This document shows, one piece after another, positions 14,501-61,329 of a stretch of DNA of 64,000 nt (the stretch's first letter is position 1; each line of letters begins with the position of its first letter). Source of the stretch: Bolinopsis microptera (lineage: Eukaryota; Ctenophora; Tentaculata; Lobata; Bolinopsidae); contig NC_087078.1 in the NCBI RefSeq assembly GCF_026151205.1, positions 16,013,118-16,077,117 of the forward strand. The letters are read 5' to 3'. The position numbers and the translations under genes are program-made. A model generated the notes under the pieces. The model did not search any database. It worked only from the letters and a program-made list of their open reading frames with translations, and was not told where the DNA came from.

Positions 14501-17500
14501 CAAGACTTTTACAGTTTATTTGATGAGGCACACCGGTCTTGTTCAAGCTCGCTTAATGATATTCACATTGATGTTCTGTTTAAGCATTGATTATTGCAAT
14601 TCATTACAATCTCGCTACTAAGGAGATAAACTGGCTTAAAAGTCTTCTAAGAATATGATCATACTCAAGCAAAATAGTTTGTGAAATCTTGGACCAAGAT
14701 ATAACTTTAAGAGCCAAATTATGAGTGCTTTAAGACTTTGATGTTTTAGCTTATGAATATAAGCATAATAAAGCTATAAAATAATATCATCCTCATATTA
14801 TAATTATAATACAAATATTCCAATAACTATTAACAAGTCTCTAGGCTTGTGGTGAGAATTACATAATTATTAAAGCCTTCGCATTCAACTCAGGTCAGTT
14901 TAGCGGCTAATTTGATGAGGCCAAAACTTAACCATTAACAATAAGTCCGTAGACTCATATTTTTTATTTGAATTGATAATTGTAGTCTATTCTACATTTA
15001 ATTATACATATTCTGCACATTTGGTAGTAGCAGTGCCGTTATTTTTTGCTACCGTAATCACACATTCTAAATGCACTGGCTCTCTGCAAGTTGAAAAATG
15101 AAAACTTTGTAACTTTGGTACTGTGACTACGTTCGTTTAATTCTGATAAATTCAATCGAGTTCTCAATGATTATCATGGAACATTCGTTGGGGCTCGAAC
15201 TTCCCCCGTTTTTAAGGTTAATGCCTGCAGGTGATTGGATTTCACAGTTGATTGATTTTCCGACTTCTACGAGGTCTAAGCCTCCAATATGCGTGTTCAA
15301 TCGAAATAGAAATAATTTATTGTACAGCAGCATGATGAACTATAGATTGTTTCAAAACACGCATCTTTGCTACAGTCGCAACAAAAGTGAACGTTAACTC
15401 AACTTCTGATGAATTTTGTCCAACTTAGTAGATCAGATTTCTAGAATCGTCAATCACGATGTAGCTGTGCGTAATAAAGTAATAAGTTTGAAGGGTAGTG
15501 GAGCATGGAATGGCGACATGATGAATTTTCAAGGCTGTGTAATATTCAACTATGAATCCTCGGTGTGTTAGTGAAATGTGTTGGATCAGTGATATTAGAA
15601 CAAAACTATTTCAAACTATTCAAACTTGGCCGGTATTTTATTACATATATTATCACCAATCTTAAGAGGTGCTTTTTCGAAAAATCAAAAGATAGATATT
15701 ACAGCACCGTTAATATCTAAATATCGAATCACCCATTTAACAAATTATCCAGGTAGCCATGATTCGGGTTCTCCTGACAGTGGCTGTTCTCTCTGTGGTA
15801 GTCTGGGGTAAGAAAACAAATTTAGAATGGGAACAGTTTGAAGGATCCACTGACGAAGATTCCATTGCGGAACATCCTGCTTACATCAACGCAAAGAAGA
15901 TGTCTCATCTCATGAAAAGACAGGGAGTGGTGTCCACATGCCGATATATCCTCTTCAAAGAAAAGAAGAACTTCTGGGATTCAAGAGATTCCTGCAAGCA
16001 GCTGGATTGGCCGTTCACCAACAATGGAGCTTGGCTGGCCGACGTCCATAACATGGAAGAGAACATGGATATCAAAATATTGCTGCAGCTTGCGTACGGA
16101 ATAAAAGATGTAGAACATAATTACCATCGGGAGAACTGGGCATGGATTGGGCTGGAAAAGATGGAGAACAATTCCTTTATGCTTGCAAAAGACGAACGCG
16201 GACCGAAGAACTTCAACCCAGAAGAGTGGCAATGGCAAGATGGAACTCACCCCAACTTTACACATTGGATGAGAGACATGCCAGATCAGGAGTACAAAAG
16301 ACCCTACAAGGATTACCAAAGGTTTGTCATGGTCAACAAGAGGGGACGATGGGATGACACTTTCGGACAAATGGAAGCACCTTATGTTTGCAACTACTGT
16401 GGAAGATACATCGTCATAGCCGAGCATGTTACCTGGCACCATGCTAAGGATCTTTGTGAGTCGTACGGTTTGACCATGGCTGTAGTGAACAGCAAGGCTG
16501 ACAATAAGGAACTGGGATGGGCTGCTGATACCACCTTTGGTCCGGTACCGGAGGAGAAAAGATGGAACAACACTAACTGGATCTGGCTGGGCACACAAGA
16601 AGTAATGGGTGAGGACGGTAATGGAACAGGAGAGTGGATTCACCACAATGGTTCTCCTCTCGAGTGGAGTCCTAAGTGGGACAGAAAGAGCCAGCCCGAC
16701 AACTGGGTAAGAAAGAAAGGTGAACAGCAAGTGGTGGCTTTCTCCAGGATAAACTCCAGGTGGGACGACTCTTTCGCTTGGTTGAAACGACCTTTTGCTT
16801 GCATGTGCCCTCATAGAGCTTGCAGCTACGATCATACTTTCAAAGGTGGACCAGGTAGCGGCGAAGATGGTCCTCGTAAATTGAAGAAACAAACGAAGAA
16901 TGAAGTGGCAAACTAAGCTAATAAATTCAAGGAAAGTAGACAGTGGGTTCTAGACGGGAGATATTTAAGTAATTGCATTTGTTCTCAATCAAAATTTTAT
17001 TTTAGATCAAGTTATTTAAGCTTATGTTTCCTTTGAGGGGCAGTAGGTTCAGCCTGAGTTTATTGTGAAATTATGTGTTAGAATTGAACTTAAAAAGGAT
17101 GGTCGAAGTAATGAAGGTATCCGGAACTTGCAAAAACAAGTTTTGGCGACTGTCTCCGATTACAGAAAGAAGTTCCAACCATGATTTTGTCTGTTGTCTG
17201 GCATACTAGTAATATTATTTTCCACAAAATTACCCATTTTCCTTCTCAGTGCACCAAAATGTGTGTATATGGCGGAGGAAAAAGGGTGGGCAGTACGACG
17301 GAATCACATGGTACTCGGATTACTATTCTTGTACATTGAAAAAAGTTTGACTTAACCTGAACGCTTATTCTTCTAGAACCTTCCAATGGAAATAAATTTG
17401 TTATTAACTTTGTTACGCTATGAGCACCAGCCTTCTATGAGTATGCGAGCGTAGTAGACTAGTTTAACAAAGGGTAAGTCATATATTGTTACTGTAAACA

Positions 17501-20500
17501 TTGGCGTCATGTTTACAGTAAAGCCCTCAGTAATCAGTATACATGTTCATCATCTCAGTTTCACAACTTTGGGGGAGTTTGATAAGTTAGTTCCGCCGTA
17601 CTGTCCGCCGTATTGTCCGCCGTACTGTCCGGTACAGTCATGTACCCCATGGTATCAGGTACTACTTTACGGTTTTCAGCAAACTCAAGATGCAGGCTGA
17701 ATCCCCAAACCCAACTTTACTATATATTTTCAGTATGATCGTTTTATGAATTTTTGAGCCAATATCATGGTTTTCGAATAAAGCAATTAATTTAATTTGA
17801 TTAGTGTTGTTTGACATTCGGGATATAAAATCTTTTACAAAAATTAATTCCCCGTCTTTTATTTGCTTCATTACCTTACAAGACATTTTTGTGGCGGACC
17901 AATGTGCGACGACCGAAATTTTGGCGGTCCGAAAATATGGCGAAATTGAACAAAAACCGTCACATTTCGGACGTCACAGAAAATAAGGGTATTTTTCATC
18001 ATTTTGTTTTCTGACACAAAGGAAATTCAAAATTTTCTAAAAATCGGTAAAATCATGTTGAAACAAAATGAAACTTATAAATCGATTTCTTCATCTTCCT
18101 CTAAGGGGTCCGGCTCGAATCTTTCAGTTTCACTTATTGAGTTTGGTATTAAATTGTTTATCTTGACTTAGTCTATAAGACGTTTATGTTAGCACATAAA
18201 TGTAATTTATTGTAAATTTAAAACGTATAACTTGACATTAAATTCATCATGGAATATTGTGTTTATTTGTCCCACCATCATATCACTAACTTTTCAAGAA
18301 CAAAATGAATCGATGAAGCCACAATTGTCAATTATTGGAATAAGCTAAAAATAATGCGACGGATTCTATTACGACGACCGAAATTTTGGCGGTCCGAAAA
18401 TATGGCGAAATTTCGGGAAAACCGTCGCATTTCGTACGTTATAAAAATGTCTTGTAAGGTACACGATTATACGAATGCTCTTCCCTCCTAAATCTCGGAC
18501 AACCAGTAAATTTCCCGCTCCCAAATATTGACGAGTCACAACACCACATCCGACCACAACTCCTCCCTGTTCACTTGACATTAAATAACTCTTCACTCGC
18601 ACAATAAACAATTAAACCTGAATGTCGTGTGGTGTTTACCACCAGAGCATACAATAAGAAGCTTTAATAAGAGAGTCCAGATCATTTGTACAATGTTTGT
18701 ATCAGCAGGCTTAAAAGGCGGATACCAGTGGAGTTTGCCTCTCCGAAAGACGGCACAATGCCACAATTACGAAGGAGGAACATCGAGCAGCACTCGCTCA
18801 TTGGTTACTTACTAATTTAAAAAACTTTGTGAGGTTTTATTTTCGACCAAATCTTCCTGACAGACAGTTGTGATTTATTTAGTTGTGGTCAAAAGATCTC
18901 CTAGAAAATGAGGGTGCTGCTAGTTCTGCTGGTATGTGTGGTCGGTCTGGAAGGAGCAAAGCAACCAAAGCTTACAAACAACGAATATGAAGCGTTTGTT
19001 GGAGCCACTGATGAGGCCATTATTATGGACGACCCGGTGGCAATCAAAGCAAGGAAGATGAGCAAGCTTCTTAAAAGGCAAGATGTGGTCGCTAACTGCC
19101 GTTATCTCCTCTTCAAAGCATACAAGAACTACACGGACGCCAAAAGTTCATGCAGAAACCTGGAGTGGCCCTTCACCCACAAAGGTGTTGACCTGGCAAG
19201 TGTGAACAGCGAGGAGGAGAACAAGGAGATCAGGATCCTGCTGCAGCTAGCTCACGGTGTCAAACAGGTCGGGAAGCTCTACAACAGAGACAACTGGGTC
19301 TGGGTTGGGTTGGAGAAGACACTCAACAACAAGGTTCTGCTAGCTAAAGAAGAGCGAGGTCCCGAGAACTACAACGCCTCAGAATGGCAGTGGTTGGACG
19401 GTACCCACCCCAAGTACACCAAGTGGATGAGAGACATGCCGGACCAGGGATACAAGAAGAAATACGATGATTTCCAGAACCACGTCATGGTTAACAAGAG
19501 AGGCCGATGGGACGATACCTTCCCTGAGATTGAGGCACCCTACGCCTGCAATTACTGTGGAAAGTACATTGTGGTTGCAGAGCACGTGACCTGGTTCCAC
19601 GCCAAGTCTGCCTGCGAGTCCTACGGTCTGACCATGGCTATAGTGAACAGCATGGCTGAGAACATAGAGTTGGGCTGGGCTGCCAACATCACCTTCGGGT
19701 CGGACCCGGAACACAAGAGATGGAACAACACTAACTGGATCTGGCTGGGAACTGAGGAGATAATGGACGCGGAGGATCACGGAACTGGGGAGTGGATCCA
19801 CCATGATGGGAGCGAGCTGGGATGGAACCCCGTCTGGGACAGGAAACTACAACCGGACAACAGGGTCGCTAAGAGGGGAGAGCAGAAAGTGGTGGCATTC
19901 TCAAGGATCAACCAGAAGTGGGACGACTCTTTCACCTGGAGGAAACGACCTTTCGCTTGCATGTGCCCTCACAGGTCATGTCACTTCCCCGAATAGACGA
20001 GAAAGTGAAGAGTAGTGATGTTAGTGTACGAGGAGGAGGAGGTTAGAGGCACTGATGAACTACATTGTGAATTTTACTCTTTGAACACAACTATATTGTC
20101 GGTTAATTAATGGTCTAAAATTTTATTTGAAGAGTTTTAGAAAAATTTCTAGTGACGGCTCACCAATATTTGAATTCTTGAAAATGTCGCTAGCTGTATG
20201 CCTGCAAAAAATCTATCGTTTTCGATTTCTATGATACGAAATATGTATTGAAATTATTGTAACATGATAATATTGTGCTTTACGTTTTAGGATAGTTATG
20301 ATTTAGTATTTCATTTTGTGGATAAGAACAAACCCAGTGCACACTATTTTCAGTTAGTTCGAACCAAACGTTAAATTCGGCCATTAAAACACGAATACCT
20401 ACCGCAATTTATCAATAAAATCAGGGCGCCCTGTCCTCAAAGGACCCCATTCATCTTCATTATAATTCACGGTCAATCGAAAAATTACAGAGATTTTCAT

Positions 20501-26500: not shown

Positions 26501-29500
26501 AAGCAGGTACGGATCATGCTGAAGAATTATTTGTGAAGTAGTTTTAAGTTATTGTTGTAATCACGGTTTTTAGTAAAAGCCATATACCCAGGATGTTACT
26601 TTACTTTAATTAGTTGATATTTTGGTTTTATTAATTAAGTTGTTGAGCAACTAATAAATGCTTTTCTTAACCTTTCTTATCCCAATATCATGCCACTTCT
26701 TTACTTCATTTCTGAACTTAAAATTTAACTTCTTTCAATCTAGACAATTTGTTTACACGCACATACAAACTAATTACACACTATACACTCTATTATTAAG
26801 ATCCTGTATACACATCATATTGTGGTAGTTGACTCGAAAAGCTAACGGCGAATGTGGGATTTTGAGTTGATTACTATTGATGTATCGTACGCAAGCAGAT
26901 TTCAATAATAAACTCTCAAGTGATTGTGAACCTTCGATCTGGTCAGGTTAGTATGAGGTGTTGTACAAAACTGAAAACAGGTTACACACGTTGTACGTGT
27001 TGATACTTAATCAGCGTGTGCAAGTGTGGGTAGTGGGTACTGGGTATGCTAAACACAAATTCATCTGGATACAAATCCTTGCGCCATGAGATACCTTTGT
27101 TTTATACTCATAGAATAATGCCCCATCTAGGAGGAGTTCGATGTCAAGCTCAAAGTTTCTTAGCCGGCTCTAGTGACTGTTTACAAGATTATGTTTAGAA
27201 GTTTATTAGCTTTTTTTGCTCACAAATTGCCATTTTGAACTCTGGTCGAATTTGTCTTGAATTTCGTAACCTTCTCCGCTTTTTACCTATTTCTAGGATA
27301 CAATCAGCACACAGTGATCAATTTCAAGGCTTGTTTCTTCATCGTGTATCTTTAGAAAAATATAATTCTGCATAGAGGACCCGAGCGTGATTCCATTTCA
27401 TTTCTTTCTAGTTTTAAAAAAAATGTTTATACGGTACCGATCGTAAGCTTTTCAGAGTAATGGAGCAGGCAAAATGTACTAGAATTTAAAGATGAGATGA
27501 GGACGGAAGATGAATGTATTTTGCCGGAATTTATAAATACAGAGATCAAGAAAGATGAAGATGATTTACATATCAAATCAGAAATGTATTCGAATCCTAC
27601 TTTGCAGATGCAGTATATAACAGAACCTCGTCCACACTATGATTCTACGGTTATCGCTGGAGACACATATAAATATGAAGGCCAAACATCACCACAAAAT
27701 GTACAAAACAATGCTCATTTAGAACTTAACCAAACTTTTGTTGCCGAAACAGAATGGATGAAAGTAACCCAAAATCAATTAGAATTCTCTGATACTGTTT
27801 GCAGTCCCAGCAAAACATCAACATTACCTTCCGATCAGCGATCTCATACCGGCGAGTGTTCCTACAGTGCAAGCAAAAAATCATCTTTATTTTTACATCA
27901 GAGGAGTCATACCGGTGAAAAACCGTATAAATGCTCTGAATGTTCCTTCAGTGCAAGCCAAAGATCATCTTTAGTTCGCCACCAGAGGATTCATATCGGT
28001 GAAAAACCGTATAAATGCTCTGAATGTTCCTTCAGTGCAAGCCAAAGATCATCTTTATTTTTACATAAAAGGATTCATACCGGTGAAAAACCGTATAAAT
28101 GCTCTGATTGTTCCTTCAGTGCAAGCCAAAGATCATCTTTAGTTCGCCACCAGAGGATTCATACCGGTGAAAAACCGTATAAATGCTCTGAATGTTCCTA
28201 CAGTGCAAGCCAAAAATCAAATTTATTTTTACATCAGAGGATTCATACCGGTGAAAAACCGTATAAATGCTCTGAGTGTTCTTACAGTGCAAGCTACAAA
28301 TCATCTTTATTTTTACATCAGAGGATTCATACCGGTGAAAAACCGTATAAATGCTCTGAGTGTTCCTACAGTGCAAGCCAAAAATCAAATTTTATTTTAC
28401 ATCAGAGGACTCATACCGGTGAAAAACCGTATAAATGCTCTGAATGTTCCTTCAGTGCAAGCCAAAGATCATCTTTAGTTCGCCACCAGAGGACTCATAC
28501 CGGTGAAAAACCGTATAAATGCTCTGAATGTTCCTACAGTGCAAGCCAAAGATCATCTTTAGTTCGCCACCAGAGGACTCATACCAGTGAAAAACTGTAT
28601 AAATGCTCTGAATGTTCCTACAGTGCAAGCCAAAAAACATCTTTATTTTTACATCAGAGGATTCATACCGGTGAAAAACCGTATAAATGTAATAGATGTT
28701 CCTACAGCGCAAGCCTAAAATCACCTTTAGTTCGCCACCAGAAGGTTCATGCCAGTAAAAAGCCAAACCAATCTTCTGAATGTTCTTATAGAGATAGCCA
28801 TGAGTCAAGGTTGGTTTCTAATCAGCGGAATGATATCGGAGAAAACTCACATACTTTTTATAAAAGTGGCCAGGCTTCCAATCCTCTACAAAACGATACT
28901 GTTGGAGGACCAATAATTTTCGTTAAGCCTCTACCTTTGACGAAGCTTCTAACATTTGCAAAGCCTCTGACCTTATTTAACCCCTTTCACCCCAGTTTCA
29001 GCTTACCTCCCAGTTCCTCCTTCAGTTATCAACCAGCATCTCAAATGTCTCACCCTGCAGCTCCTCTCACCTTCTCACCTGGTGAGTCTGTCTTCACACC
29101 TCCTCCCTCTGTCTCACCTACCTACTCTACAACAAATCCTCCCCCTCTCATATCTCCAGTCAGTACAGTGGTTACGGGGCGTAAATAACTGGAGCATATC
29201 GCTATTGAAATGTATGTAATATCAAACGCCGGGGGATCACTAGTTATAAGTTAACGTACAGTGATCACTGAGGTCATATCTTGTTCCTGAACAGCATTAT
29301 ATCATATATCAGTCAAGACTGAGATTGTTAACAAGTTCAAGTGACACTCAACTCCTACGCATCAAATGAATGGGATAAATAATTGGATTTTGCAAGTTTT
29401 CTTCTCTATCCATCCCGAAACCCGGAATTTGAAACTGACAAACATTCCTTTCTCCGATCCCGGCTCCCTTTGTCTATTTTGACATAGAAGTCTGAGCGGC

Positions 29501-44414: not shown

Positions 44415-44984
44415 GTGATAGACTACTTAGTAATATTACGCCTACTTAGGCATAAACACAATTATTATCCATAAAATTTGCAATATTATATAAAACTAGA
44501 AAACCCGTGGTCATAGGGAGGAAGCTAATAGTATTTTTTGTTAGTAAGTTTTTCTCGCATCAAAAAATATCCGTCACAACCAAAGATACAGCCGATTTAA
44601 ATGTTGCTTGTACTAAACACAGCGTAATATCAACAAAACCGATCAAAATGACGTTAAAACAATCATTGCACGTGCACGTGCGTGTAACAATTCTCGTTAC
44701 TATGGTTACTTTGCAACCTTTTTCTTTTTTACCTAATTTGCACGTGGGCGGTCGTACATACATACATTCTACAGAAACAATTCTCTGAATTATAGTAGAG
44801 ATAAGCCGAAATAAGTTATAGAGTTCATTCTGTAACTGACTTCATATTAAAAATTGACTATGTCCATAACTCGAGTATTTTCGTTCACCCTATCTGCATT
44901 TTCCATGACGGAAACAAACAAATCCTGGACTTCCTGGGCATCTTTACAATTATTGTCTTCGTCACAGCAGCAAGTTTTTTTTTT

Positions 44985-47008
44985 AAAAAAACAAGGTTAC
45001 AAGATAGTGCGGGTGATGCTAAAAAGACTTATTCCATCGTTAATAAGTTGCTCAATAAAGAAAAAGTTAGTACTACTACACCTTCTTGCTCTTCAAATCT
45101 TGAGAGTGCTAATAACTTTGCACAGTTCTTTAAATCAAAGGTCGACAACATATACAACAACATTTATTTAGAACAACAATCCCAAGATTCTCCTAACTCA
45201 GATGAATTTGTTCCTCTTTCTAATAGCCCAAAGATAGTACAATTCCGTCATGTGTCTGATGAAGAACTAGTAAGCATCATAAAGAATATGTCAAACAAAT
45301 TCTGTGATCTTGACCCCATACCTACAAAGATTCTCATCAAGTGTCTCCCAGAACTCCTTCCTCTGATCTCATTTATAGTCAATGAATCATTAGTTAAAGG
45401 TGAGTTTCCTATAAAACTTAAGGAGGCTCTCATTCGTCCAAGTTTGAAGAAACGTGGCCTTGACGGTGAATCTCTATCTAACTATAGGCCTATTAGCAAT
45501 CTCTCATTCTTGTCAAAAATCATTGAGAAGTGTGTATCTATACAGCTCACCAGTTATCTTGAGGATAACAACTTGCTTTCTAAAGTTCAGTCCGGCTATA
45601 GGAAGTTTCATAGCTGTGAAACTGCAACAACCAGAATCCATAACGACATCTTGATAACTATTGACAAGAAAACTAAAGTTGTTCTTTTACTTCTAGATTT
45701 GAGTGCTGCCTTTGATACTGTCAATCACCCAAGATTAATCAAGAAGCTAAGATCTGCTTATGGCATTACAGGCATTGCTCTTACATGGATCAGGTCCTAC
45801 TTGGCTAACCGTTCATTTTGTGTCAAAGTCAAGGATTCGTCTTCCTCAGCAACTGTTCTTGAGATAGGTGTGCCACAAGGTTCAATCCTTGGCCCCCTGC
45901 TATTCATATTGTACACCAAAGATCTTGAGAACATTGCAAGTATGCATGGGTGCTGTATTCATTTGTATGCTGATGACACCCAGCTGTATTTCACTCTTGA
46001 TTCTGATGACCCATCACAGCTAGAGCACAATATGGAACACTGTATGTCTGATATCAAGAAATGGATGACAAACAATTTCCTTCAACTGAATTCTTCTAAG
46101 ACTGAAGTCATCGTTATATCCTCTAAATTTGACTCACAAAATATTCCAGCCTCTCTACAGATTGTTAAGGATCAAGAGCCACATGTTGTTAGTGGAACTG
46201 TGAAGAGTCTTGGGCTGTATTTGGACAGTTATCTTTCAATGAGTGATCAGATTACGTCAGTGGTTCAAGCATGTAATATTCAGATCAGAAATTTGTGGTT
46301 TATTGCATCAAAACTGTCTTTTAACCTTAAGATTCAGCTTGTTCATGCTCTAGTACTCTCTAGAATTGATTATTGCAATAGCGTATATTTTGGACTGAGC
46401 TCTTATGATTTAAGTCGTTTACAGAAGGTGCAAAATTCTGCTGTAAGATTTATTTTCGGGAGAGGAAGAAAGGCACACACTACTCCACTACTTAAGAAAG
46501 TTCATTTTCTACCAGTTAGATTTAGAATAGATTTTAAGATTGCCCTACTTGCCTACAAGTGTTTAAATAATATAGCTCCTCCTTACTTAAAAGAGTTGAT
46601 ATCTCCTAGGCAGCAAAGTTTTAAAAATGTACGTCTTGATAATGATTATTTTTACCTTAGTTTTCCGCCCTCTCCTAACTATGTAAACACAGAGAAAGCT
46701 TTTAGTCACTGTGCAGTTAAAGTATTTAATTCCTTGCCATACGACATAAGATCAGCTGAGTCAGTTACATCTTTCAAGACCAAACTTAAAACATACTTCT
46801 TTTCTCTAGCATTTGATTGATTTTGCATTTACATAGGTAAAATGAACTTGTCATGTCTAATTTTCAATTAAACTAAGCTCAGTTAATGTAAGAGCCGCTT
46901 TAGAAAGCACTGGAGTTTATCTCCAGGATTAAACTATATCGAGTTATATGATTTAGCTATAAGGCGGTTTATAAATGTTGTATTTATTATTATTTATTTT
47001 ATTATTAA
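44985..47008 (+). mobile_element. 5'-truncated L2/CR1-like LINE
   Basis: The coding frame is open from about 44985, where it follows a T-run/A-run junction, so the 5' part with the endonuclease is missing. After the stop comes a short 3' UTR with the hairpin-like GCACTGGAGT...CTCCAGGATT and a GGCGGTTTATAAATG word. It ends in TATT/TTA microsatellite repeats, as usual for this LINE group. Confidence 0.88.
45048..46820 (+). CDS. Non-LTR reverse transcriptase (partial, open)
   Basis: An uninterrupted 590-residue frame, in frame with sequence back to about 44991; there is no native ATG at the start. It contains the ordered reverse-transcriptase motifs: NYRPISNLSFLSK, the catalytic strand LLLDLSAAFDTV, GVPQGSILGPLLF and LYADDTQLY with the YADD catalytic pair. 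Downstream come the thumb region and a C-terminal part with SRIDYCNSV and LPVRFRIDFK, typical of the L2/CR1/jockey side of LINEs. The endonuclease is absent through 5' truncation, so this copy cannot move alone. The lack of stops or frameshifts suggests a young insertion. Confidence 0.92.
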   Translation: MLNKEKVSTTTPSCSSNLESANNFAQFFKSKVDNIYNNIYLEQQSQDSPNSDEFVPLSNSPKIVQFRHVSDEELVSIIKNMSNKFCDLDPIPTKILIKCLPELLPLISFIVNESLVKGEFPIKLKEALIRPSLKKRGLDGESLSNYRPISNLSFLSKIIEKCVSIQLTSYLEDNNLLSKVQSGYRKFHSCETATTRIHNDILITIDKKTKVVLLLLDLSAAFDTVNHPRLIKKLRSAYGITGIALTWIRSYLANRSFCVKVKDSSSSATVLEIGVPQGSILGPLLFILYTKDLENIASMHGCCIHLYADDTQLYFTLDSDDPSQLEHNMEHCMSDIKKWMTNNFLQLNSSKTEVIVISSKFDSQNIPASLQIVKDQEPHVVSGTVKSLGLYLDSYLSMSDQITSVVQACNIQIRNLWFIASKLSFNLKIQLVHALVLSRIDYCNSVYFGLSSYDLSRLQKVQNSAVRFIFGRGRKAHTTPLLKKVHFLPVRFRIDFKIALLAYKCLNNIAPPYLKELISPRQQSFKNVRLDNDYFYLSFPPSPNYVNTEKAFSHCAVKVFNSLPYDIRSAESVTSFKTKLKTYFFSLAFD

Positions 47009-50900: not shown

Positions 50901-53265
50901 TTAGAGAGCATGATGTGGTAGTTTTACTAAACTGGACGGTAGGAAACACATGACGTGATGTGTTACAAGATCCAGTCGTTGTCCTGCAGAGGCGGTATAA
51001 GTAACGTGGCACATGCCTGCATGGTTATTGTTACAGTTACCATGGTAACAGTGGTAAATTTAGTAGCGCTAACCGGGGGACATCACTCTCAGATGGTTCA
51101 GTGGAGAGGAAGTGGCTACAGTCATGTATAAGGCCTTGTTAATGGTTTCGTCGACAATAATATTTTCCTGAATGTGATCATAATGTTGTTATGTTCTGCA
51201 TAATGTTGTTATGTTCTCCACACAGGGAGACTTTAGTGCAAACCATAACAGTAAACCTTTACTATCTCTTATCCTCCCGGGACATCTGCAAAACATGTTA
51301 ACAAAACGATCCGTAGAGCCAAAGATGTGATCCATCCCGGGTCCTTAGAGTTGGTTCACTCTTAATTAGATTACACGCCGGGTTTTTGATATCACTATCA
51401 GATGAGGTCAGAGTTTTGGTTTCACAGAAATTCTTAAATCTGATCTCATGCCGAGTGATGAATATAAATCTCCAAACTTCAGTGAGTTTTAGCTCAAGTT
51501 TGCCTCTACCTCCATCCTACATCGACCGAGAGTGAGCGGTCCTTTCTTTGGTATATATTGCATGAGGCAGTGCCTTTTCTAAATAAAGGATACGTATCAC
51601 CTTGTGAGTGCTCCATGCGGCTATTGATGTGTTTCTTAACAGCATGTTGTGCTGCTGTACGCGTCTACCAATCTTAATAAATTGTCGTACACACTGCACG
51701 GCTGATAATAACTAATAATCCATTATCTGATTACTGGTTATTATATAATAACTAATAATCCATTATCTGATTACTGGTTATGTTGATCGTACCAGCGACC
51801 AGAGAAGCACCGGTTATTGGTTGCATTATAGTAGCTTTTATTGGTTATGTTAATTTCTAATGGCTATTACCCGAGGACTTCACTATCAGTTGTTCATTGT
51901 TCCGTATCAAAGATTCGGCGGAGAAATAGGCCGCCAAGTTTTCGCTCAGCTTTCGGTAATGCTATTTTCTAACATTATAATGTCTATTGGTTTAATTAGA
52001 ACTTTTATAAATCAAACACAGTTTAGCTAAACTGGGCCACTACTAACCCCCTCCAGTAAGTTTTAAGCTTGTCGCCAAGATTATAAGAATATTTAATTGT
52101 ATTTTTAATTGTTTCGAATGTAATGATTATGTAAATAGTACCTGCAGGGAGGTGAAACCTGTCTTTTATCTATCGCGTAGTTTTTAAATAACACACCCTT
52201 TTCTGGTAAAGATCTTCACAGGTGTTTGAAATCTTCACAGCCGATAAAATTAAAGATTTCACCGAACCCCAATTCATTTACATTTCCCCTACTTTGTTAA
52301 ATAAACATGGAAACTTAAGATGAAAATACAATAACTTTGGTAAGAATACATTAGCCTTTGTTACGAATTCGTTCCCAAGTGGTCTATGATACCCACTCTA
52401 CTGTTTCACTATATCCGTACTACCTCACGAGACCTGGCGTCAACCAGAAGAACCGCTATAAGTTTCTTCCGCCAATAGTGTTATTTATTCTGTACACCGA
52501 CAATTTTTCTTTGTTTGTAATTGTTGAATGTTGCGGTACATAATTGCTTTAATATTTTAAATTGTATAATTGAGACCTTTACCAAATTAGTAGTACATTA
52601 CTTTAATTTCATGCGACTGTTTTCTTTTGTATGCGTAAATTATATTCGTCGTTAATTCTGTCTCGAAAACATTATATTATATTAATTATAGTATAAATTC
52701 AAACTAAACACCCAAGGCTATGCGACATTAGGATGAATGATTGTCGTTTTATTGTATGTTTCTTTATTAATGTATGGTCCACGTTGTTTATCCTGCGTGT
52801 GGCCTCGTTGTGAGCGTTAGTGTTAATTTTACTATGATTAAGGGTCCCTCAAATGAAAACGTTTGGAGTTCACATAGCTTATATAATATATATCATGCTG
52901 CAGGTGCCCTCTGTTTCATCGAGATAGTCGACAGGTGCAAGATAATATACTAAGGGTTTGAAAGGGAGCTAATCTGGCAAACAGGCGGACAAAAGCTCAC
53001 CGCTGGTCCGTTGTTTTTAATCTTATTTCCTCTTATTCAACAACAATATTTTGTTGGTTGTTTGCGCAACTTCAATGTTAGCCTGGTCTTGTGGCAGTTC
53101 ACTTAACGTTCAGTCCTTCAGTTGAATATAGTTTACTTTCAAAGGTAGCCATTTCTCAGTCCGTTTGGATTGTTTTTATTTCAAGCCATAAAGGAACCGT
53201 TCTCATAGCGTCAACACATTGACCTACCAAAAGGATACTCGCAACAGGAAGCAGTTATCAACAGA
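48000..53265. other. Gene-free interval upstream of the receptor gene
   Basis: No gene seen. GC-rich words recur in AT-rich DNA: GCGCGCGCTACTTCGTAGCA (about 48028) and a related GACGCGCGCCTTTTCGTAGC (48238), TGCGCTATTGTGCCGCGCCG variants, and ATTGACATCGTCAAT at 48405 and 49130. Short tandem duplicates occur at 51180-51215 and 51706-51780. The start of the receptor promoter should be near the right end. Confidence 0.5.
50521..50690. repeat. Dispersed GC-palindrome repeat, copy B
   Basis: Second copy of the repeat at 13893-14047, same orientation, with the same ordered blocks ending GGCGCCGCGATTTTTGGCC-TAAATAATCG. This copy has about fifteen extra bases (GATTTTTGAAATGTTTCC region). Confidence 0.75.
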
Positions 53266-56200
53266 ATGAAGAAGTGGGCTTTTTGCTCTTTTCTATTCAT
53301 CTTAGGAGCTTCTGCTCAGGAACCTCAACCAGGTCAGTTTAATTTTAGATCAGAAAATCAAAATTCAAATACTGCAGATTTGTGTTAAAAGCATGTAATA
53401 ACTTATGTGGAGGACACCCCGGTTCGTGCTCCGTAAGACGAGTAAAGCTTATGATCAATTATTTGCTTGTAGGCACGGAAGAACTTAGCTCCGACCAAAA
53501 TTATCACCGTCTTATATGTGCTTTTAGGGTATGTATTCATTATATACAATTTAGAGATAACAATAACTAATAAATTTCATCCCAGCTGCCACAATAACAC
53601 CCACCACGGAGATAGTGTACGCGGTTGAAGAGCACGTGATTAGATGTGAAATTACTGGTATCCCCAGACAAGTCAATGGTGTCCGTTGGAGACCTGCACA
53701 GCAGAGGATAATAGGATATAATCTAAATGATGGAACTTTCGATCGGAAAACGAAGTCTCAAGTTTCCAGGCTGAGGATATCAGCTGCAAAACTGGTCGAA
53801 CTGAGAAACAGTACGCGCGAACATACCTTCACGTGCAGTTTCGATATTGGTAACACTAAATTTAGTGCTAACAAAATCATCACTATCTTTAATCCGAGTA
53901 AGAAACTCAGTTTTAATTTATCCTTTTTTTCTTCTTTATGTTTATCGCCTATTTTCATATAAAATCATATTTTCATTGATTGAACGTTTCGTGGTTCGGT
54001 GAAGTAAAAACGGATTCGTGTTTTGAGTGATTTTTAGTGGTCCAGTTCGGGATCAGGAAACAAAATTAAGCCGAATTTGTTTCCGTGGTAAGATGTTGTA
54101 ATATTTCAATAATACCTTTAGCCAGGGTTTGTTCAATAGCACAAAATATTTGGTTAGATTCAGTTCGGAATAAAATGAGTGGTTCGGTTGAACGTGCGAT
54201 TCAGTCGTTTGCTAAATACCCTTCAAATTATTTTGACAACATTGAATCATTTCCCAACATAATTGTATTAACTCAAATACATTCCCAGGTGTGAGAATAC
54301 ACACAGCTACAGAGAATGTATATGCTACCAAATCCCATTCCATAAACTGTCACTTGGATGATCATCCTAACAAAGTAACTGGCGTGCAGTGGCCTCCTGC
54401 AACAGGAGATACAAATGGATACTCTTTTGACGATGGCATTTTCTATGAAATTGAACTCCCCCTTCAATACCATCAAACTCCAATTCTGACGATATCAGCT
54501 GCCAAACTTGTTGAGCTGAGAACTTCTGCTGCTTCACACACTTTTACGTGCAAGATTGTTGTTGGTTCCACCAAAATACCGGTTACTGCTACTCAAACCA
54601 TTACCATCTTCAACCCTGGTATGTGAATTCAAATTTATTTACATTTTGTTTATTTATTAACAGTTGATATCATCATTGATGGCGAAATTTGAATAAAAAT
54701 TCAACTATATTCTTAAATCAAAAACGGACTGACCAAAAGTTTAAAAATAGACTGCTTTGAATTGATTTAAATCTTATTTCAGGTTTATCAATAGGTCCGT
54801 GGATGCAGAATGTGTATACCACGTACAATCATATCATCAGTTGTATGTTGTCCGACATCACTGAAGAATATATTTTCTTATGGACTCCTCAACGGTATTG
54901 GGATTCAGGAATTACTTTGTCGAATGGAACTTTCGATTCGACTTCGAGCTCTCAAGTGTCCACGATGACGATATCGCCTGTTAGTTTGAGAGATTTCCAG
55001 AGCTACTCCAATCCACAAACTTTCAGATGCAGTGTTACAATAAACGATACTGATTTAATCACTGCTAGCCAAGTTATCACTTTCTTTAATCCAAGTAAGA
55101 AAATATAGACAATTTTAATAATCAGTCGTCAGTCACTGCCAAATTCCAATGGACGTTTAAGCTGTTTTAGTCACAGAAATTCAAAAAAGACTTAAAAGGC
55201 GTTTATAAAACCACACATTTACCTCCATGGGAACCTTTAAACAAACGAATACAATTTCAGCTGCAATTATAACGTCAAATACGTCAAACGCGTACATTAT
55301 GGAAGATCTTGTCATAAAGTGTAGACTGTCTGGTATCTTTGGCCAAATAACTGGTGTACTCTGGAACCCTGCAGTAGAGACACCCAAAGAGTATATTTTG
55401 ACGGACGGAACTTTCGATTCTAAAACCAATTCCCAACAGTCCACGTTAACGATAACAGCGTCAAAACTTGCCTTACTTAAATCTGATCAGGCGATATGGA
55501 GATTCACTTGCGAGTTCGTGGTGGATCCTGATTCTAAAAAATCAGTACAGGCAACTGAATCTGTCGCTATCTTCAATCCATGTAAGATTATTCCAGATTA
55601 TTTTGACTTTATTGTTGTAATTATTTGATATATAGCACTCTTTGCATAATAAATAAAAGACAATCTGTCAAAAATGTATGAATTCTGTTCATTATGATTA
55701 AGGTAAGGCAAAAGGACTGTTTATCAGAAACCCAGAAAATTGGCAAGTTATCGACAGGCTTATAATGAGTAAAAATTGATGGTCAATAAAGGTTGGATAA
55801 TGTTATAACAATTCTTATATCGCGTGTTTTTCAATTGGAAGCTTTAAGAGAATGTATAATACCGAATCACCATTGTCATTGCAACATGATACTCACCATT
55901 TAGCTTATGTAGCTGGTCGGCCGTTCTTTAATTTTGCTTTTAGTGAGCGACAAATGATAGTAACCATTAATAATAATTATCAAAAATATGCTCATAAAAA
56001 TACATTTATCACGTATTTAAATGTAATTGACTATTTCAGCTGTTACGATAACGCTCAGTTCTGATACTGTATATACAGTGAAAGACTTTAAAATAACTTG
56101 CACTTTGAACGATGTCTCATATGCAATGGCTGAAACTCTGCTTTGGACTACAACACCAATAAAAGAACCATCCAAGTTAATAACATTAGATGGATTTACT

Positions 56201-59200
56201 GCAGATCTTGTGAAGAACGGATCCTACGTGTCCATCCTGACAGTCCCAGCTGACGAGCTTAGTGCCGCTTCACACATGTTTACTTGTCAGATAACCGTTG
56301 GTTCCAGCAACACGATAATTTCCGATACCAAATTTATCACCATGATTGATCCAAGTAAGAAAATTGGTTTTGATAGATCGACCATAATGTTATTGTTAAT
56401 CAGCTGAACATGATCTTCAGTATATTTGCTCAGTTTTTTTCTTTTAGTCGAAAAGATCAAACAGAATCAATAGAAATTTACCCAAGAAAACAGAATCATA
56501 GCGATCCCAAACAATACATGCCAAGTTTCACAACCTTATGCTCTCATAAAGAAATCATTACAGTCAAATGTCACAAAATTGTCTTTCTGATGCGCCCACA
56601 GCAGCTATAAAAGTTCCCATGATTGATTTCAGTTTCTTCTTCACGTGTAATTTCGACTACAGATAATTCACAATTAAATTTAACATCTGTTATCGGCATG
56701 CAAAATGTTCAGGGCAGGTCATGTAAGAAATGTTTTATCACATAGAAAATTCATTCAAACAATTCATTAATATTTCCTATATTTCAGTATCATCGCTTTC
56801 TTCTTTCGACATAGAAAGTGAAAAAGTCATTAAGCATACACGCAGTGAAGGTTTGCTCTCGCTGTCGTACGGGGACTCGGATGGTAAAGAAATGATGGGA
56901 ACTGTTTGTGGTGATTTCAACTTTGACATGTCAGACGAATTTTGCATGAAATTTGGTTATCAATATGGAGAATGGGGAAAAAGTAGATATCGAAAGCAAT
57001 ATGCTACTCAACAGTAAGTAATATGCTACTCAGCAGTAAGTAATATGCTACTCAACAGTAAGTGATATGCTACTCAACAGTAAGTTATATGCTACTCAAC
57101 AGTAACTGTAAGTAATATGCTACTCAGCAGTAAGTTATATGCTACTCAAGAGTAAGTAATATGCAACTCAACAGTAAATTATATGCAACTCAACAGTAAG
57201 TAATATGCTACTCAACAGTAAGTAATATGCTACTCAACAGTAAGTAATATGCTACTCAACAGTAAGTAATATGCTACTCAACAGTAAGTAATATGCTACT
57301 CAACAGTAAGCAATATGCTACAGGCTACTCAACAGTAAGCAACAGGTTGGGCAGGTTGGGCAGAACCATGAGCGGTGAGCCTCAATAAGCTTACGTCGTA
57401 GTACTCACTAGTAGACTTCAATGGAGTTTAATCTAATATTCCCTTCTAAACCTAATGCCATGATTTTGCTATACTGTTTCAGTTTACTAAACTCACTAAT
57501 TTACTCAGGACGGTTCTTAACGATCAAGATTATCAAATCCTGCAATGCAATATGACCGGTTCTGGCACGATATTCTGCAAAGAGCTATCATCTGATTTGC
57601 AAACTTGTAGCCACGGTGATGATATTTGGTTACAATGCGCAAATTCGACAGGTAAAATATGATAATTTCATTGTTTGACAATTTTGTTAATTTGCTCAGA
57701 GACGGGTAATCAGTAAGTAATCTAGCCTCAAAATTAAGTTGTTCTTAATCTGAGAATCCTTCAATGCTCAAGTTTAAAAATCATTGAGTAATTTACCTTA
57801 TCCCTATAAAATCCCAAATGATTGACTATTAGTTTCACTTCTTACCGTTATTATCCGTTATTATAGAAATTAAAAGTTTGATCGCAGATACGGAAAGATG
57901 GCGAGTTGACGGCAAGTGTGGTCCGGATTATCCTTTACGGGATGGAAGTGCATCCGAATGTGATCCTTCCGGAGAGGACCCTTGCTGTAACCAAGATGAT
58001 CAATCTTGTGGAAACACTCAAAATTACTGTACATGCGAAAGATGTATTGATTACAGAACACAAGTACAAGAAGAGGGGTGTAAGATATCAGAGGTGGGCA
58101 GGTTTCTCAAAAACTTTTGTTTCACTAAAATTCTCAAGGAGCATTACAAGTGTCTCCATTCCGATGTAGTTTACAAAGAGGAGTTAGGAACATGGGATCA
58201 GGATCTCGGTGGGGCCACGCTGTCCAGTGTTACAGATGTGTGTGAAAATGATCCGTTTGTTTACCAAGCTTGTGGCTTCAACACTCCCATCAGCAACAGT
58301 GAGGTTCTTTGCAACGGATTCTTTTGTCCAGATGAAGAAACTACCCAGAGAAATCACAAATATACTGATTTCGCCGGAGAAAAGACTTGTGGGGACACTA
58401 CCAAAGTTGAATCTGAAGAAGATACCTCGGAGGTTTGTGATGGTAAGTGTGACACTGCTAACACTTGTGCTGATGAAAGTGAGTGTAATGGAGAGATTTA
58501 TGGATTGAAATGTGATAAATCAGAGAATGAAACAAGCTACATCCCTGTACACTGGATATGTAATGGAAATCCAGGATGTGAAGATGGAGCGGATGAAAGC
58601 AGGTGTGAGGTTCCAAATGAAAAGGAAGTAAAAACCTGCATGCATTACTACGGTAATTTAATTTTGGGGAAAGACATCATAGTGCCCATCTTGAATTTCA
58701 CGAGATGTGCTGTTTTCGACATAGCCAACGGAGTCTACCCTTATTGTTTGGATTTCATGGACCAAACCAACTGTACAGATGTCCAACGGGTCGGAGGAAA
58801 GTGCAATGTCAACAACATGTTGACAAGAATCTCTATGAGTATGGTTTGTTACAATCATAAACTTTGTGATGATAATATTGAAAATGTGTGTGAATCCCCT
58901 TCCAGTCTGACGAATTGCAAGGTCCACCGACACAGGATGTGTGATGGTGTGAATGACTGTGACGACGGCAGTGATGAACTTCATGACGACTGTAAACTTA
59001 CCGCTGAAAGCTTCCAGTGTAAAAGAAGATTTGGCATCGATAAAGAAATGAGCCTTCCACTAGCTTGGACTATGGACGGTATAGAAGACTGTATAAATGG
59101 GTATGACGAGAATCAGGATGAGTGGAAACGATGTGGAAATGAGACAAAGAAAACTCTTCGATGGATCCATAATAAAAAAGGTGACGAAAAAAATTACTGT

Positions 59201-61279
59201 AATGACGTTTTCCTATGCTCAAAGGGAAACACGACTTTTGTGAGCCTTGATATTGTGTGCGACGGTGTTGAATCCTGCGGGGCGAGTCTTGAGAACCAAA
59301 TCTGCAGAATTTCCAGAGACTTTCCTAACATCAGAAGGATTCCATTAGTTAGTGACAAAGTTGCAGAATTGTGTGCTGAAACGGACTCGAAAGAATGTGA
59401 GCAGAAGGATTTCATAGGACCAGCAGGCCCAACCTTTGGAGTTTCTAAAACTCTTAATGTTCCGAAGACTAAGGTCGACTGCAATGGCTTGTTTGGAGAG
59501 TTATATGTCTACCTCAGCTGCATGAACCTCTGTATAAACTCCACTTGCCCACTATCAGAAACTCCTGTGAAGTACGATGAGTGCCCCGGTCAGTACCCTG
59601 ATCGCGTGTACTCTTTAGCAAACAACAAAGATCTCACCTTCGTCACCAAATCTGATACACAAAATTATCAGAGCAACAAATTTCAGTGCAACAACTCACG
59701 TTGCGTGGATTACAGCCAGGTTTGTGATCTCACAAATGACTGTGGTGACATGTCTGACGAAATAAATTGCAAGAATAATGTTCGCTGCCTTGATGATACA
59801 AATCATCTCATTTCCCTGGACCAGCAGTGTGATGGCATGTTCGATTGCTTCGACTTAAGTGATGAGTGCAATCTAAAATGTAAGAAGCAGATTCTCGAGA
59901 ACTGGTTTCTGAAAGCGATTTGTTGGATAATGGGTGTCCTTGCTACCATATTCAACTCTGTACTCATTGTTCAAACAGTTTCATCTTTCAGAGCAATAGA
60001 GACAGGAAACATGCTCCAAACCAAGGTTCTTGTGACTCTGATCGCCATAGGAGACTTGCTGAATGGTGTTTACTTAGTTGTTATGTCTGTTTACGATAGC
60101 TTTGTATTCGGACATGACTACTGCACATATCAAGTGCAATGGCTGTCAGGCACAGCATGTGCCCTGTTAGGGGTGATCAGCACTATGGGATCTCAGCTGT
60201 CGTTATTCGCCATGACAGTTCTCAGTCTTACCAGAGTCATTGGACTTACTTGCAGCTCTATGACCGCTCCTTCAGTCGTGAACAAGAAAATAAAAGTTAA
60301 AATCGTCGCATTGGTGACATCAATTTTGGCTTTGTCTGCAGCTGTAGCATTGGTTCCTCTAGCACCTTCCTTGGAAGATTACTTTGTGCAAGGCTTATAC
60401 TACGAGCCGGAAAACAAAGTATTCATTGGTTTTCCAAATAAAGAGAAGCATGTCAAAGTCCTGAGAGTCTACGAAAGTGATCCAGAATTACCCATGGACA
60501 TGAAGTGGAGTCTTATTCACGAGAAGGTAAAAGAAATGTTTACCAATGACTACAAAACACTCAGCTGGAAAACAATACATTTCTACGGAAATGACGGTGT
60601 GTGTTTGTTTAAATTCTTCGTTCGAAGTGACGATGCTCGAAGAAGCAGACAAACGCTTGACATCAAAACAGGGGTCCTCGATTACATTGATTTCCAGGGG
60701 AATCTTATGTTATGGATCATGCTGGTAATCAATATTGTCTGTTTCATGATAATGACCGTATCATACGTATTGATAACAATCCAGACATGGAAATCTTCGT
60801 CTGAATCAGGTCAAAACAAAAACGTTCACGCTGTTCGACAAAACAAGAAAGTTCAGCTCAGGATAACATTGATAATCGCGACTGACTTTCTCTGTTGGGT
60901 GCCTTTCATCATTGTCTGTACTCTCCATAACCTACAGCTGATTGATGCGACAAAATGGTACACATACTTTGCGATGATAGTGCTCCCGATAAACTCAGTG
61001 ATAAATCCCCTGCTTTATGACAACACAGTAACAGGGTTATTTGGAACGTTTTTCAAACGTTCAGGCTCTCTCCTTAACTCAACAGTAATTACATCTGTCC
61101 GTAGAGCATCTCTTACAGTCACTTCTCAGCAGCAGGGAGAAAGCATTCGTCTTGATGCTATTCAGCATTCAGCCCTTCGTTACAAAGTCAAACTGCATCC
61201 AGCTGATGAGATCCATCATAACCCTTCAACACCAATTGTTGCAATTCATCCAGACGATCCAGCAATGAGCAAAGTATGA
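53266..61279 (+). CDS. Ig-SRCR-LDLa seven-transmembrane receptor, nine exons
   Basis: A 1812-residue cell-surface receptor. Exons: 53266-53332, 53586-53897, 54289-54618, 54783-55094, 55261-55581, 56040-56354, 56788-57013, 57509-57651, 57867-61279; all phases match and the total is 5439 nt. Signal peptide 1-18, five Ig-like domains (about 23-552, one per exon), an SRCR domain (about 565-675), a hevein-like Cys motif (about 691-735), LDLa-type repeats through about 1345, then seven helices (about 1356-1730). The helices match relaxin-receptor/LGR and GRL101 types: GDLLNGVYL in helix 2, WLSGTACALLGV in helix 3, TDFLCWVPF in helix 6, NSVINPLLY in helix 7. The leucine-rich repeats usual in that family are absent. 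Likely couples a ligand or surface-recognition event to G proteins; the ligand is unknown. AATAAA lies at 61308. Confidence 0.88.
53586..56354 (+). CDS. Five single-exon Ig-like domains of the receptor
   Basis: Five exons of 312, 330, 312, 321 and 315 nt, all phase 1 at both ends, so each can be lost or duplicated without frame change. Each has the Ig pattern: a first Cys (as in VIRCEITG), a Trp about 14 residues later (GVRW, GVQW, FLW, GVLW, LLW), an L-x-I strand, and a second Cys in HTFTC-like context, ending in IxIFNP or a variant. Several share the phrase ISAAKLVELR or DGTFD, pointing to tandem exon duplication. They match no specific Ig family that I can name. Confidence 0.85.
56788..57651 (+). 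CDS. SRCR domain split over two exons
   Basis: Exon 7 (56788-57013) gives the first half with GTVCGDFNFDMSDEFCMKFG, which matches the usual GTVCDD...A..VCRQLGY pattern. Exon 8 (57509-57651) gives the second half, with FCKELSSDLQTCSH and WLQC for the last cysteines. The intron between them starts with a minisatellite that repeats the end of exon 7 together with the splice donor. Confidence 0.85.
57014..57350 (+). repeat. Minisatellite built from a 5' splice site
   Basis: About fifteen direct copies of a 22-bp unit, TAATATGCTACTCAACAGTAAG and close variants. The unit equals the last bases of exon 7 plus its donor (CAACA|GTAAGT), so the intron begins with a row of intact-looking donors. Unit lengths vary slightly near 57108 and 57320. 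Confidence 0.95.
57867..61279 (+). CDS. Receptor exon 9: LDLa region and seven helices
   Basis: One large exon of 3413 nt. It opens with a Cys-rich segment (GKCGPDYPLRDGS, then ECDPSGEDPCCNQDDQSCG) that resembles hevein-type chitin-binding spacing. LDLa-like repeats with C-D-G-x2-D-C-x-D-x-S-D-E signatures follow, best seen at CDGVNDCDDGSDE, CDLTNDCGDMSDE and CDGMFDCFDLSDE; at least three others are degenerate (ICNGNPGCEDGADE, TMDGIEDCINGYDE, VCDGVESCGASLE). The helices follow at about 1356. The second extracellular loop is unusually long, about 110 residues. The helix 3 end reads SLTRVIGL, without the usual acidic residue before Arg. The tail of about 85 residues is Ser/His rich. Confidence 0.88.
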
Positions 61280-61307: not shown

Positions 61308-61329
61308 AATAAAACAAATGTTTAATAAA
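61308..61329 (+). promoter_or_regulatory. Polyadenylation signals of the receptor gene
   Basis: Two AATAAA hexamers (61308-61313 and 61324-61329), 30-50 bases after the stop codon. Confidence 0.75.

What the first reader, a model, noticed from the sequence alone, without database searches (positions are those of the whole stretch)
53266..61279. Receptor fusing five Ig domains, SRCR, LDLa repeats and an LGR-type 7TM
Relaxin-type and GRL101 receptors carry LDLa modules with leucine-rich repeats. Here the leucine-rich repeats are absent and the ectodomain has Ig and SRCR domains, both classic immune or recognition modules. I know of no described receptor with this order. It would link an innate-recognition-like ectodomain directly to G-protein signalling.
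Basis: partly seen in the sequence, partly recalled or inferred. Interest (0 to 1): 0.85.

Follow-up and report, generated by a model that had tools for sequence, protein, structure and literature searches.

The report
Comb-jelly receptor with immune-like sensor domains
A comb-jelly gene appears to join five immunoglobulin-like, one scavenger-receptor-like, one lectin-like and several LDL-receptor-type domains to a hormone-receptor-type signalling core, and it belongs to a large comb-jelly family whose outer domains vary from copy to copy, so these animals may sense microbes, prey or other surfaces directly through G proteins.

Summary
Nine GT-AG exons (53266-61279) splice into one 1,812-aa frame: signal peptide, five Ig-like modules, SRCR, Cys-rich/LDLa stalk and a 7TM core closest to RXFP1; no leucine-rich repeats were detected. 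The Ig and SRCR copies score below Pfam cut-offs, but a fold model (pLDDT 90) and a family profile support them. The genome is a ctenophore's, probably Bolinopsis. At least 172 places there carry this 7TM core. Of 105 examined, 34 have hevein-like and 17 SRCR modules upstream; the window's Ig type lies near 1 of 172. One other gene (C13) has a different Ig in front of SRCR-hevein-LDLa-7TM. So the order is not unique, and the larger find is a family with shuffled, immune-type ectodomains on an LGR-like core. Function is inferred: most likely a surface or pattern receptor signalling through G proteins, with chemosensing the main rival. No transcript was available, so a split gene is not excluded. 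New variant of a known kind.

The parts
53266..53332 (+). exon 1: signal peptide (MKKWAFCSFLFILGASAQEPQP), ends in phase 1
   Evidence: only separate signal-peptide exon found by the scan of 53000-57900
53586..53897 (+). exon 2: Ig-like module 1 (phase 1-1 exon)
   Evidence: fold model pLDDT 90.3, Ig fold
54289..54618 (+). exon 3: Ig-like module 2
54783..55094 (+). exon 4: Ig-like module 3
55261..55581 (+). exon 5: Ig-like module 4
56040..56354 (+). exon 6: Ig-like module 5
56788..57013 (+). exon 7: first part of SRCR domain (226 nt, phase 1 to 2; same length as the matching exon of paralogue L007)
56994..57321 (+). 22-bp minisatellite, 14.6 copies, that begins in the 3' end of exon 7 and repeats its splice donor through the intron
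57509..57651 (+). exon 8: second part of SRCR domain
57867..61279 (+). exon 9: hevein-like module, Cys-rich/LDLa stalk, 7TM, cytoplasmic tail, stop
57893..58057 (+). hevein-like module with eight cysteines; aromatic chitin-binding residues absent in this copy
58889..58993 (+). LDLa repeat (aa 1017-1051)
59687..59770 (+). LDLa repeat (aa 1283-1310); best Pfam stretch aa 1277-1310
59879..61063 (+). LGR-type 7TM core with about 115 residues between TM4 and TM5
   Evidence: hydropathy flags six of the seven helices

Best explanation
This is one gene for a large class-A receptor of a ctenophore. Shown from sequence: a secreted-side array of five Ig-fold modules, one SRCR domain, one hevein-like module and an LDLa/Cys-rich stalk sits on a 7TM core of the relaxin/glycoprotein-hormone receptor type that keeps most residues usually needed for G-protein switching. 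Inferred: the N-terminal modules bind a surface ligand (microbial, prey or foreign-cell glycoconjugate, or a partner protein). Binding moves the LDLa stalk, and possibly the long loop between TM4 and TM5, against the 7TM bundle and so activates a G protein, as the LDLa module is thought to do in RXFP1/2. The five Ig exons are symmetrical phase 1-1 units of a kind that occurs elsewhere in this genome in Ig arrays and other proteins, so exon shuffling onto an existing SRCR-hevein-LDLa-7TM gene is the likely origin. The family (at least 172 places) varies the outer modules and keeps the core, the pattern expected of a recognition repertoire.
For: Open nine-exon model with matching phases. The scan for separate signal-peptide exons found one in 53000-57900, upstream of the Igs; the in-frame Met upstream in exon 7 is only weakly hydrophobic (1.33). 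SRCR-bearing paralogues L025 and L026 have a signal-peptide exon before their SRCRs. LGR-type core. Ig fold. SRCR profile. Hevein-like/PGRP3 profile. Family size at least 172. Upstream same-strand proximity among 105 places: SRCR 17, hevein-like 34, window-type Ig 1; opposite strand 0/0/0, downstream 1/0/0. In 17 of 17 aligned cores the TM2 Asp, the two loop cysteines, the Arg of DRY and the TM6 Trp are kept; NPxxY in 16 of 17. Window-type Ig modules in other proteins. Gene at C13 whose Ig exons fit the phase of its SRCR exon. LDLa module described as the activating, possibly tethered, element of RXFP1/2 (passages of PMC4561518).
Against: No transcript, protein or ligand data. The Ig and SRCR copies of this gene miss Pfam cut-offs. 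The hevein-like copy lacks the aromatic residues that bind chitin in PGRP3 (against passages of PMC4610682). A strong alternative acceptor at 56448 and an ATTAAA at 56673, both between Ig5 and SRCR, could end an Ig-only transcript. In the close relative L002 a strongly hydrophobic Met start runs straight into the SRCR exon (3.03), so that gene may begin at SRCR without Igs. No convincing first exon was found for L007. The acidic residue of the DRY motif is replaced in 17 of 17 cores, so coupling may differ. Window-type Ig lies near 1 of 172 7TM places, so it is not a general part of the family. Of 18 family loci read, 3 (L001, L009, L014) show neither SRCR nor hevein-like modules in the DNA held.
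Confidence: 0.5

Rival explanations
1. The receptor, like its family, is mainly a chemosensory or prey/environment sensor rather than an immune receptor; the outer modules are generic binding domains.
For: Large copy number fits chemoreceptors. A GRL101-type receptor is enriched in starfish sensory tentacles (passages of PMC6267866). In Mnemiopsis, four copy-number-variable GPCRs belong to clades that radiated within ctenophores, and 79 GPCRs lie in the top 10% of XP-CLR regions (passages of PMC13231562).
Against: SRCR, Ig and PGRP-type hevein-like modules together are more typical of surface or pattern recognition than of small-molecule sensing (inference); no expression data here. In Mnemiopsis 8 of 12 differentially expressed SRCR genes rose after a second Vibrio exposure, none after the first (passages of PMC11797021), and these need not be GPCRs.
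Confidence: 0.26
2. Two products or two genes: a secreted five-Ig protein (exons 1-6 plus a short tail) and an SRCR-hevein-LDLa-7TM receptor started elsewhere.
For: A good acceptor at 56448 would add eight residues and a stop (sequence, site), and an ATTAAA lies at 56673. Window-type Igs lie near none of the other 171 7TM places. L002 has a hydrophobic start running into its SRCR exon.
Against: No second signal-peptide exon was found between Ig5 and SRCR and the in-frame start in exon 7 is weak (1.33 against 3.03 in L002). Exon 6 donor and exon 7 acceptor are in compatible phase. L007 has Ig exons in phase with a 226-nt SRCR exon.
Confidence: 0.15
3. A cell-cell recognition or adhesion receptor (self/non-self or neuronal) that uses the Ig array for homophilic or heterophilic binding.
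For: Among the Ig model's best structural matches are adhesion molecules such as Dscam, basigin, DIP proteins and NCAM.
Against: These matches show the fold only; shark VNAR and T-cell-receptor domains score almost as high. The other recognition modules would be unexplained.
Confidence: 0.09

Closest known systems
Type-C LGRs (RXFP1/2, GRL101-type)
   Same: 7TM core: RXFP1 is the best PDB hit; LDLa modules above Pfam cut-off
   Different: No leucine-rich repeats reported (and 0 of 6 paralogue exons); Ig, SRCR and hevein-like modules instead; about 115 residues between TM4 and TM5
[quoted passage not shown]
   Different: Treated there as leucine-rich-repeat receptors; no Ig, SRCR or hevein-like module is mentioned in the passages seen
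Adhesion GPCRs of sponge and amphioxus with SRCR, Ig or LDLa (passages of PMC4302439 and PMC2246102)
   Same: SRCR, Ig or LDLa modules on a 7TM receptor
   Different: Adhesion-class 7TM, GPS in 28 of 40 sponge members; here class-A 7TM and no GPS or 7tm_2 match
Ctenophore SRCR proteins of Mnemiopsis (section 6, part 1, of PMC11797021; passages)
   Same: SRCR combined with LDL, Ig and other domains in a ctenophore
   Different: The legend lists 7TM with the C-type-lectin panel, not with the SRCR panel; figures were not seen
Amphioxus BbtPGRP3 (passages of PMC4610682)
   Same: Eight-cysteine hevein-like module over the whole domain (E 1e-16)
   Different: No PGRP domain match here; this copy lacks the chitin-binding aromatics

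Membership tests
Type-C LGR | LGR-type class-A 7TM | tested here: met
   7tm_1 3.8e-12 on the core; RXFP1 9.4e-14, then LH/CG, FSH, TSH receptors
Type-C LGR | LDLa module(s) in the ectodomain | tested here: met
   Pfam 2.1e-10, four stretches
Type-C LGR | Leucine-rich-repeat domain | tested here: not met
   No LRR family at E up to 1 on the full protein; none on the large exons of 6 of 6 paralogues sent, at E up to 0.1
Adhesion GPCR | GPS/GAIN and 7tm_2 | tested here: not met
   Neither family reported at E up to 1
SRCR superfamily | SRCR domain | tested here: met
   Family profile to CD163 2.4e-13; 5 of 5 members match PF00530 at E up to 1; the window copy alone is below cut-off (E 8.5e-4)
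Immunoglobulin superfamily | Ig fold with B/F cysteines and C-strand Trp | tested here: met
   C20, W34 and C83 invariant in the 19 modules aligned; model and fold matches. Sequence-only Pfam tests stay weak
Immunoglobulin C1-set | C1-type sequence and strand pattern | tested here: inconclusive
   Profile's best PDB sequence hits are mostly antibody light chains, matched in the constant domain; C1-set matches 4 of 19 members, best E 0.0042; structural matches shown do not single out C1 domains
Hevein-like chitin-binding domain | Eight cysteines in hevein spacing | tested here: met
   The window copy has all eight; invariant in the 12 copies chosen for A2, while 4 of the 18 copies found (all in L013) lack the last two; PGRP3 1e-16, hevein 0.048; PF00187 in 4 of 12 at E up to 1
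Hevein-like chitin-binding domain | Chitin-binding aromatic residues | tested here: not met
   No aromatic in the loop after CC in the window, L002 and L007 copies; at least one in the other 9 of 12
Peptidoglycan recognition protein | PGRP/amidase domain | tested here: not met
   No such Pfam match at E up to 1 on the full protein
G-protein-coupled receptor (function) | Coupling to a G protein | not testable with these tools
   Motifs largely kept; coupling needs an assay

The most novel reading that the evidence does not exclude
Ctenophores built a large receptor repertoire in which immune-type recognition modules (Ig, SRCR, PGRP-type hevein-like) are shuffled onto an LRR-less relaxin-receptor-like core, so that pattern recognition is wired directly to G-protein signalling; the window gene is an extreme member with an added Ig array.
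Probability: 0.3. Interest if true: 0.87.

Novelty: new variant of a known kind. Interest (0 to 1): 0.66.

Why it matters
[quoted passage not shown] A family of at least 172 places with a constant signalling core and swapped recognition modules gives concrete candidates and a direct test: whether a class-A GPCR can serve as a pattern receptor. It also bears on type-C LGR evolution: an LDLa-bearing, LGR-like core without leucine-rich repeats in a ctenophore is either an early or a stripped form, and the comb-jelly LGR described in the passages of PMC4079206 that I read has 20 leucine-rich repeats.

Tried and rejected
The single-sequence fold of Ig1 was poor (pLDDT 53.8) and was replaced by the five-module alignment. 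A claim that the Ig modules are antibody-like C1-set domains was considered because antibody constant domains top the profile search, and dropped: the structural matches shown do not single out C1 domains and the PDB is rich in antibodies. Chitin binding by the window copy was considered and dropped. I first took the Ig fusion as unique; L007 ended that. A 2,802-aa open frame reported for C4:9411034 is a run of N read through, not a longer receptor. L003 shows its ectodomain broken over several frames and may be a pseudogene; L001 lacks the N-terminal part of the stalk. Ig-like exons about 3.9 kb upstream of SRCR in L002 may belong to a neighbour, as L002 has a start of its own at SRCR. GPCR motif names are recalled. 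Kringle in L020 is recognised by eye.

Limits of counts. One search used 105 of the 125 rows (20 second fragments left out), 119 of the 120 rows (the window's own exon-8 row left out), all 150 and all 113; its single downstream hit is an SRCR. One search used 43 representative positions of the 113 Ig hits, with a 20-kb margin. The 18 family loci read (L001-L016, L025, L026) are not a random sample; L025 and L026 were chosen because SRCR hits lay upstream, and sequences of the window, L002, L007, L025 and L026 built the SRCR profile. The signal-peptide scan sees only separate first exons of 46-130 nt; starts running into the SRCR exon were checked later. A2 took 11 of the 18 hevein-like copies plus one more from L010. 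Paper searches: searches listed only 15 of 34, 15 of 1,912, 12 of 82 and 8 of 29,549; the library holds open-licence papers only.
Full report
Gene model. The stretch 53266-61279 gives nine exons, all with GT-AG borders, that splice into one 1,812-aa frame. Exons 2-6 are symmetrical phase 1-1 units of 312-330 nt, one Ig-like module each. Exons 7 and 8 share one SRCR domain (junction in phase 2). Exon 9 (3,413 nt) holds everything else, to the stop at 61279, with AATAAA at 61308 and 61324. A scan for separate signal-peptide exons found one in 53000-57900, exon 1, against 15 in 128 kb of both strands of the window. A later check of starts that run into the SRCR exon gave a weak one here (hydropathy 1.33) but a strong one in the close relative L002 (3.03). 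Paralogues L025 and L026 have a signal-peptide exon before their SRCRs. Between Ig5 and SRCR lie a strong acceptor (56448) and an ATTAAA (56673) that leave room for an Ig-only product. One gene is the better reading, but only a cDNA can settle it.

Domains. Pfam on the whole protein reports only 7tm_1 and LDLa. The 7TM core is nearest to RXFP1, then LH/CG, FSH and TSH receptors. Single Ig modules stay weak in Pfam. The five window modules aligned together give a confident model (pLDDT 90.3, pTM 0.81); Foldseek and VIA return Ig domains (best E 2.5e-5; best Z 11.5, rmsd 1.9 over 92 residues). The SRCR is weak alone (E 8.5e-4) but secure as a five-member profile. In PGRP3 Trp53 and Trp55 of this module are involved in chitin recognition (passages of PMC4610682). 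The copies in the window, L002 and L007, the three sampled genes with both SRCR and this module, have no aromatic residue in that loop; the other 9 of 12 copies have at least one. The window copy is thus unlikely to bind chitin in the known way.

Organism. An ionotropic glutamate receptor of the same assembly matches ML032222a (3.7e-75) and 4zdm (4.4e-60), with the next structure at 1.9e-32. The assembly is 264.65 Mb. Mnemiopsis has 248 Mb and 13 chromosomes (abstract of PMC11797021). I take it as a ctenophore, probably Bolinopsis; the species is a guess.

Family. The window's 7TM core matches 105 places in its genome and a divergent member's core 110; together 172 distinct places. Each search scored only the best of 565 and 580 candidates, so the count is a lower bound. 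Among the 105 places of the first search, hevein-like modules lie upstream on the same strand within 12 kb at 34, SRCR at 17 and window-type Ig at 1; on the opposite strand 0, 0, 0, and downstream 0, 1, 0. Within 20 kb on either strand, window-type Ig lies near 1 of all 172. In the 18 loci read, SRCR occurs in 10 and hevein-like modules in 7, two having both, with up to seven in a row in L013; three show neither, and there were no antisense hits. No LRR was reported in the large exons of 6 of 6 paralogues sent. In 17 of 17 aligned cores the TM2 Asp, both loop cysteines, the Arg of DRY and the TM6 Trp are kept; NPxxY in 16 (NPxxF in L014); the acidic residue before the Arg is missing in 17 of 17 (motif names recalled). 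A tree of the 17 cores places the window gene with L001-L003 (98/96).

Where the Igs come from. Window-type Ig modules occur elsewhere in arrays, on C9, C10 and C3 among other places, and in a protein of kringle-like and Ig modules (L020). Symmetrical phase 1-1 exons suit insertion by exon shuffling. At C13:5836667 (L007) a two-exon Ig domain of ordinary type (Ig_2 7.3e-5, below cut-off) lies in phase with a 226-nt SRCR exon, the same length as exon 7 here, followed by hevein-like, LDLa and 7TM; its first exon was not found. The Ig-SRCR-hevein-LDLa-7TM order is thus seen twice in this genome with different Igs.

Mechanism. Inferred by analogy: in RXFP1/2 the LDLa module, not involved in ligand binding, is thought to act on the TM domain (passages of PMC4561518). 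Here an LDLa repeat ends about 50 residues before TM1, so binding at the outer modules could move the stalk against the 7TM and the long loop between TM4 and TM5 (about 115 residues). Ligand class, partner G protein and cell type are unknown.

Comparison. The gene fails the LRR test for LGR membership and the GPS/7tm_2 test for adhesion GPCRs, so I file it in neither; its core is related to type-C LGRs and it may work like one. SRCR, Ig and LDLa on adhesion-class receptors are in print for sponge and amphioxus, type-C LGRs with added CUB domains for cnidarian and placozoan, SRCR combined with Ig and LDL for Mnemiopsis, and GPCR clades that radiated within ctenophores. The combination on a class-A, LRR-less core did not appear in the listings of nine paper searches, four of which showed only part of their hits.

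Verdict. New variant of a known kind; interest 0.66.

Noticed in passing
window 56994-57321: A 22-bp minisatellite of 14.6 copies starts in the coding end of exon 7 and repeats its splice-donor sequence, giving nine further donor-like sites in the intron.
   Followed up: partly
window 11536-12756, 15741-16913, 18905-19993 (+): Three neighbouring open frames with C-type lectin domains (Pfam 4.9e-9, 1.4e-7, 6.3e-7), about 33-42 kb upstream of the receptor.
   Followed up: partly
window 27461-29185 (+): C2H2 zinc-finger frame that contains an 84-bp tandem repeat of 10.4 copies.
   Followed up: partly
window 44805-46817 (+): Open frame with a reverse-transcriptase domain (5.9e-34), probably a retroelement.
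   Followed up: no
L028 (C13:8499500-8509400) and L029 (C13:13039500-13047000): Family members whose open frame runs on after the 7TM into a very long tail of short repeats (such as DNPDQDDIGQGKKT), over 1,000 aa in L028.
   Followed up: no
L020 (C9:9853000-9860000): A 1,520-aa open frame alternating modules that look like kringles (by eye) with window-type Ig modules.
   Followed up: no
L011, L013: Tandem hevein-like modules (six and seven copies) in the 7TM exon; copies differ in loop aromatics, and four of the seven in L013 lack the last two cysteines.
   Followed up: partly
L001-L016 and window, 7TM core: The acidic residue before the conserved Arg at the end of TM3 is replaced by T, I, S or V in 17 of 17 cores, while the Arg is kept in all.
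   Followed up: no
L002 reverse strand, start of SRCR exon: A hydrophobic in-frame Met start (MHCMVLIILHIL...) runs straight into the SRCR exon, unlike in the window gene.
   Followed up: partly
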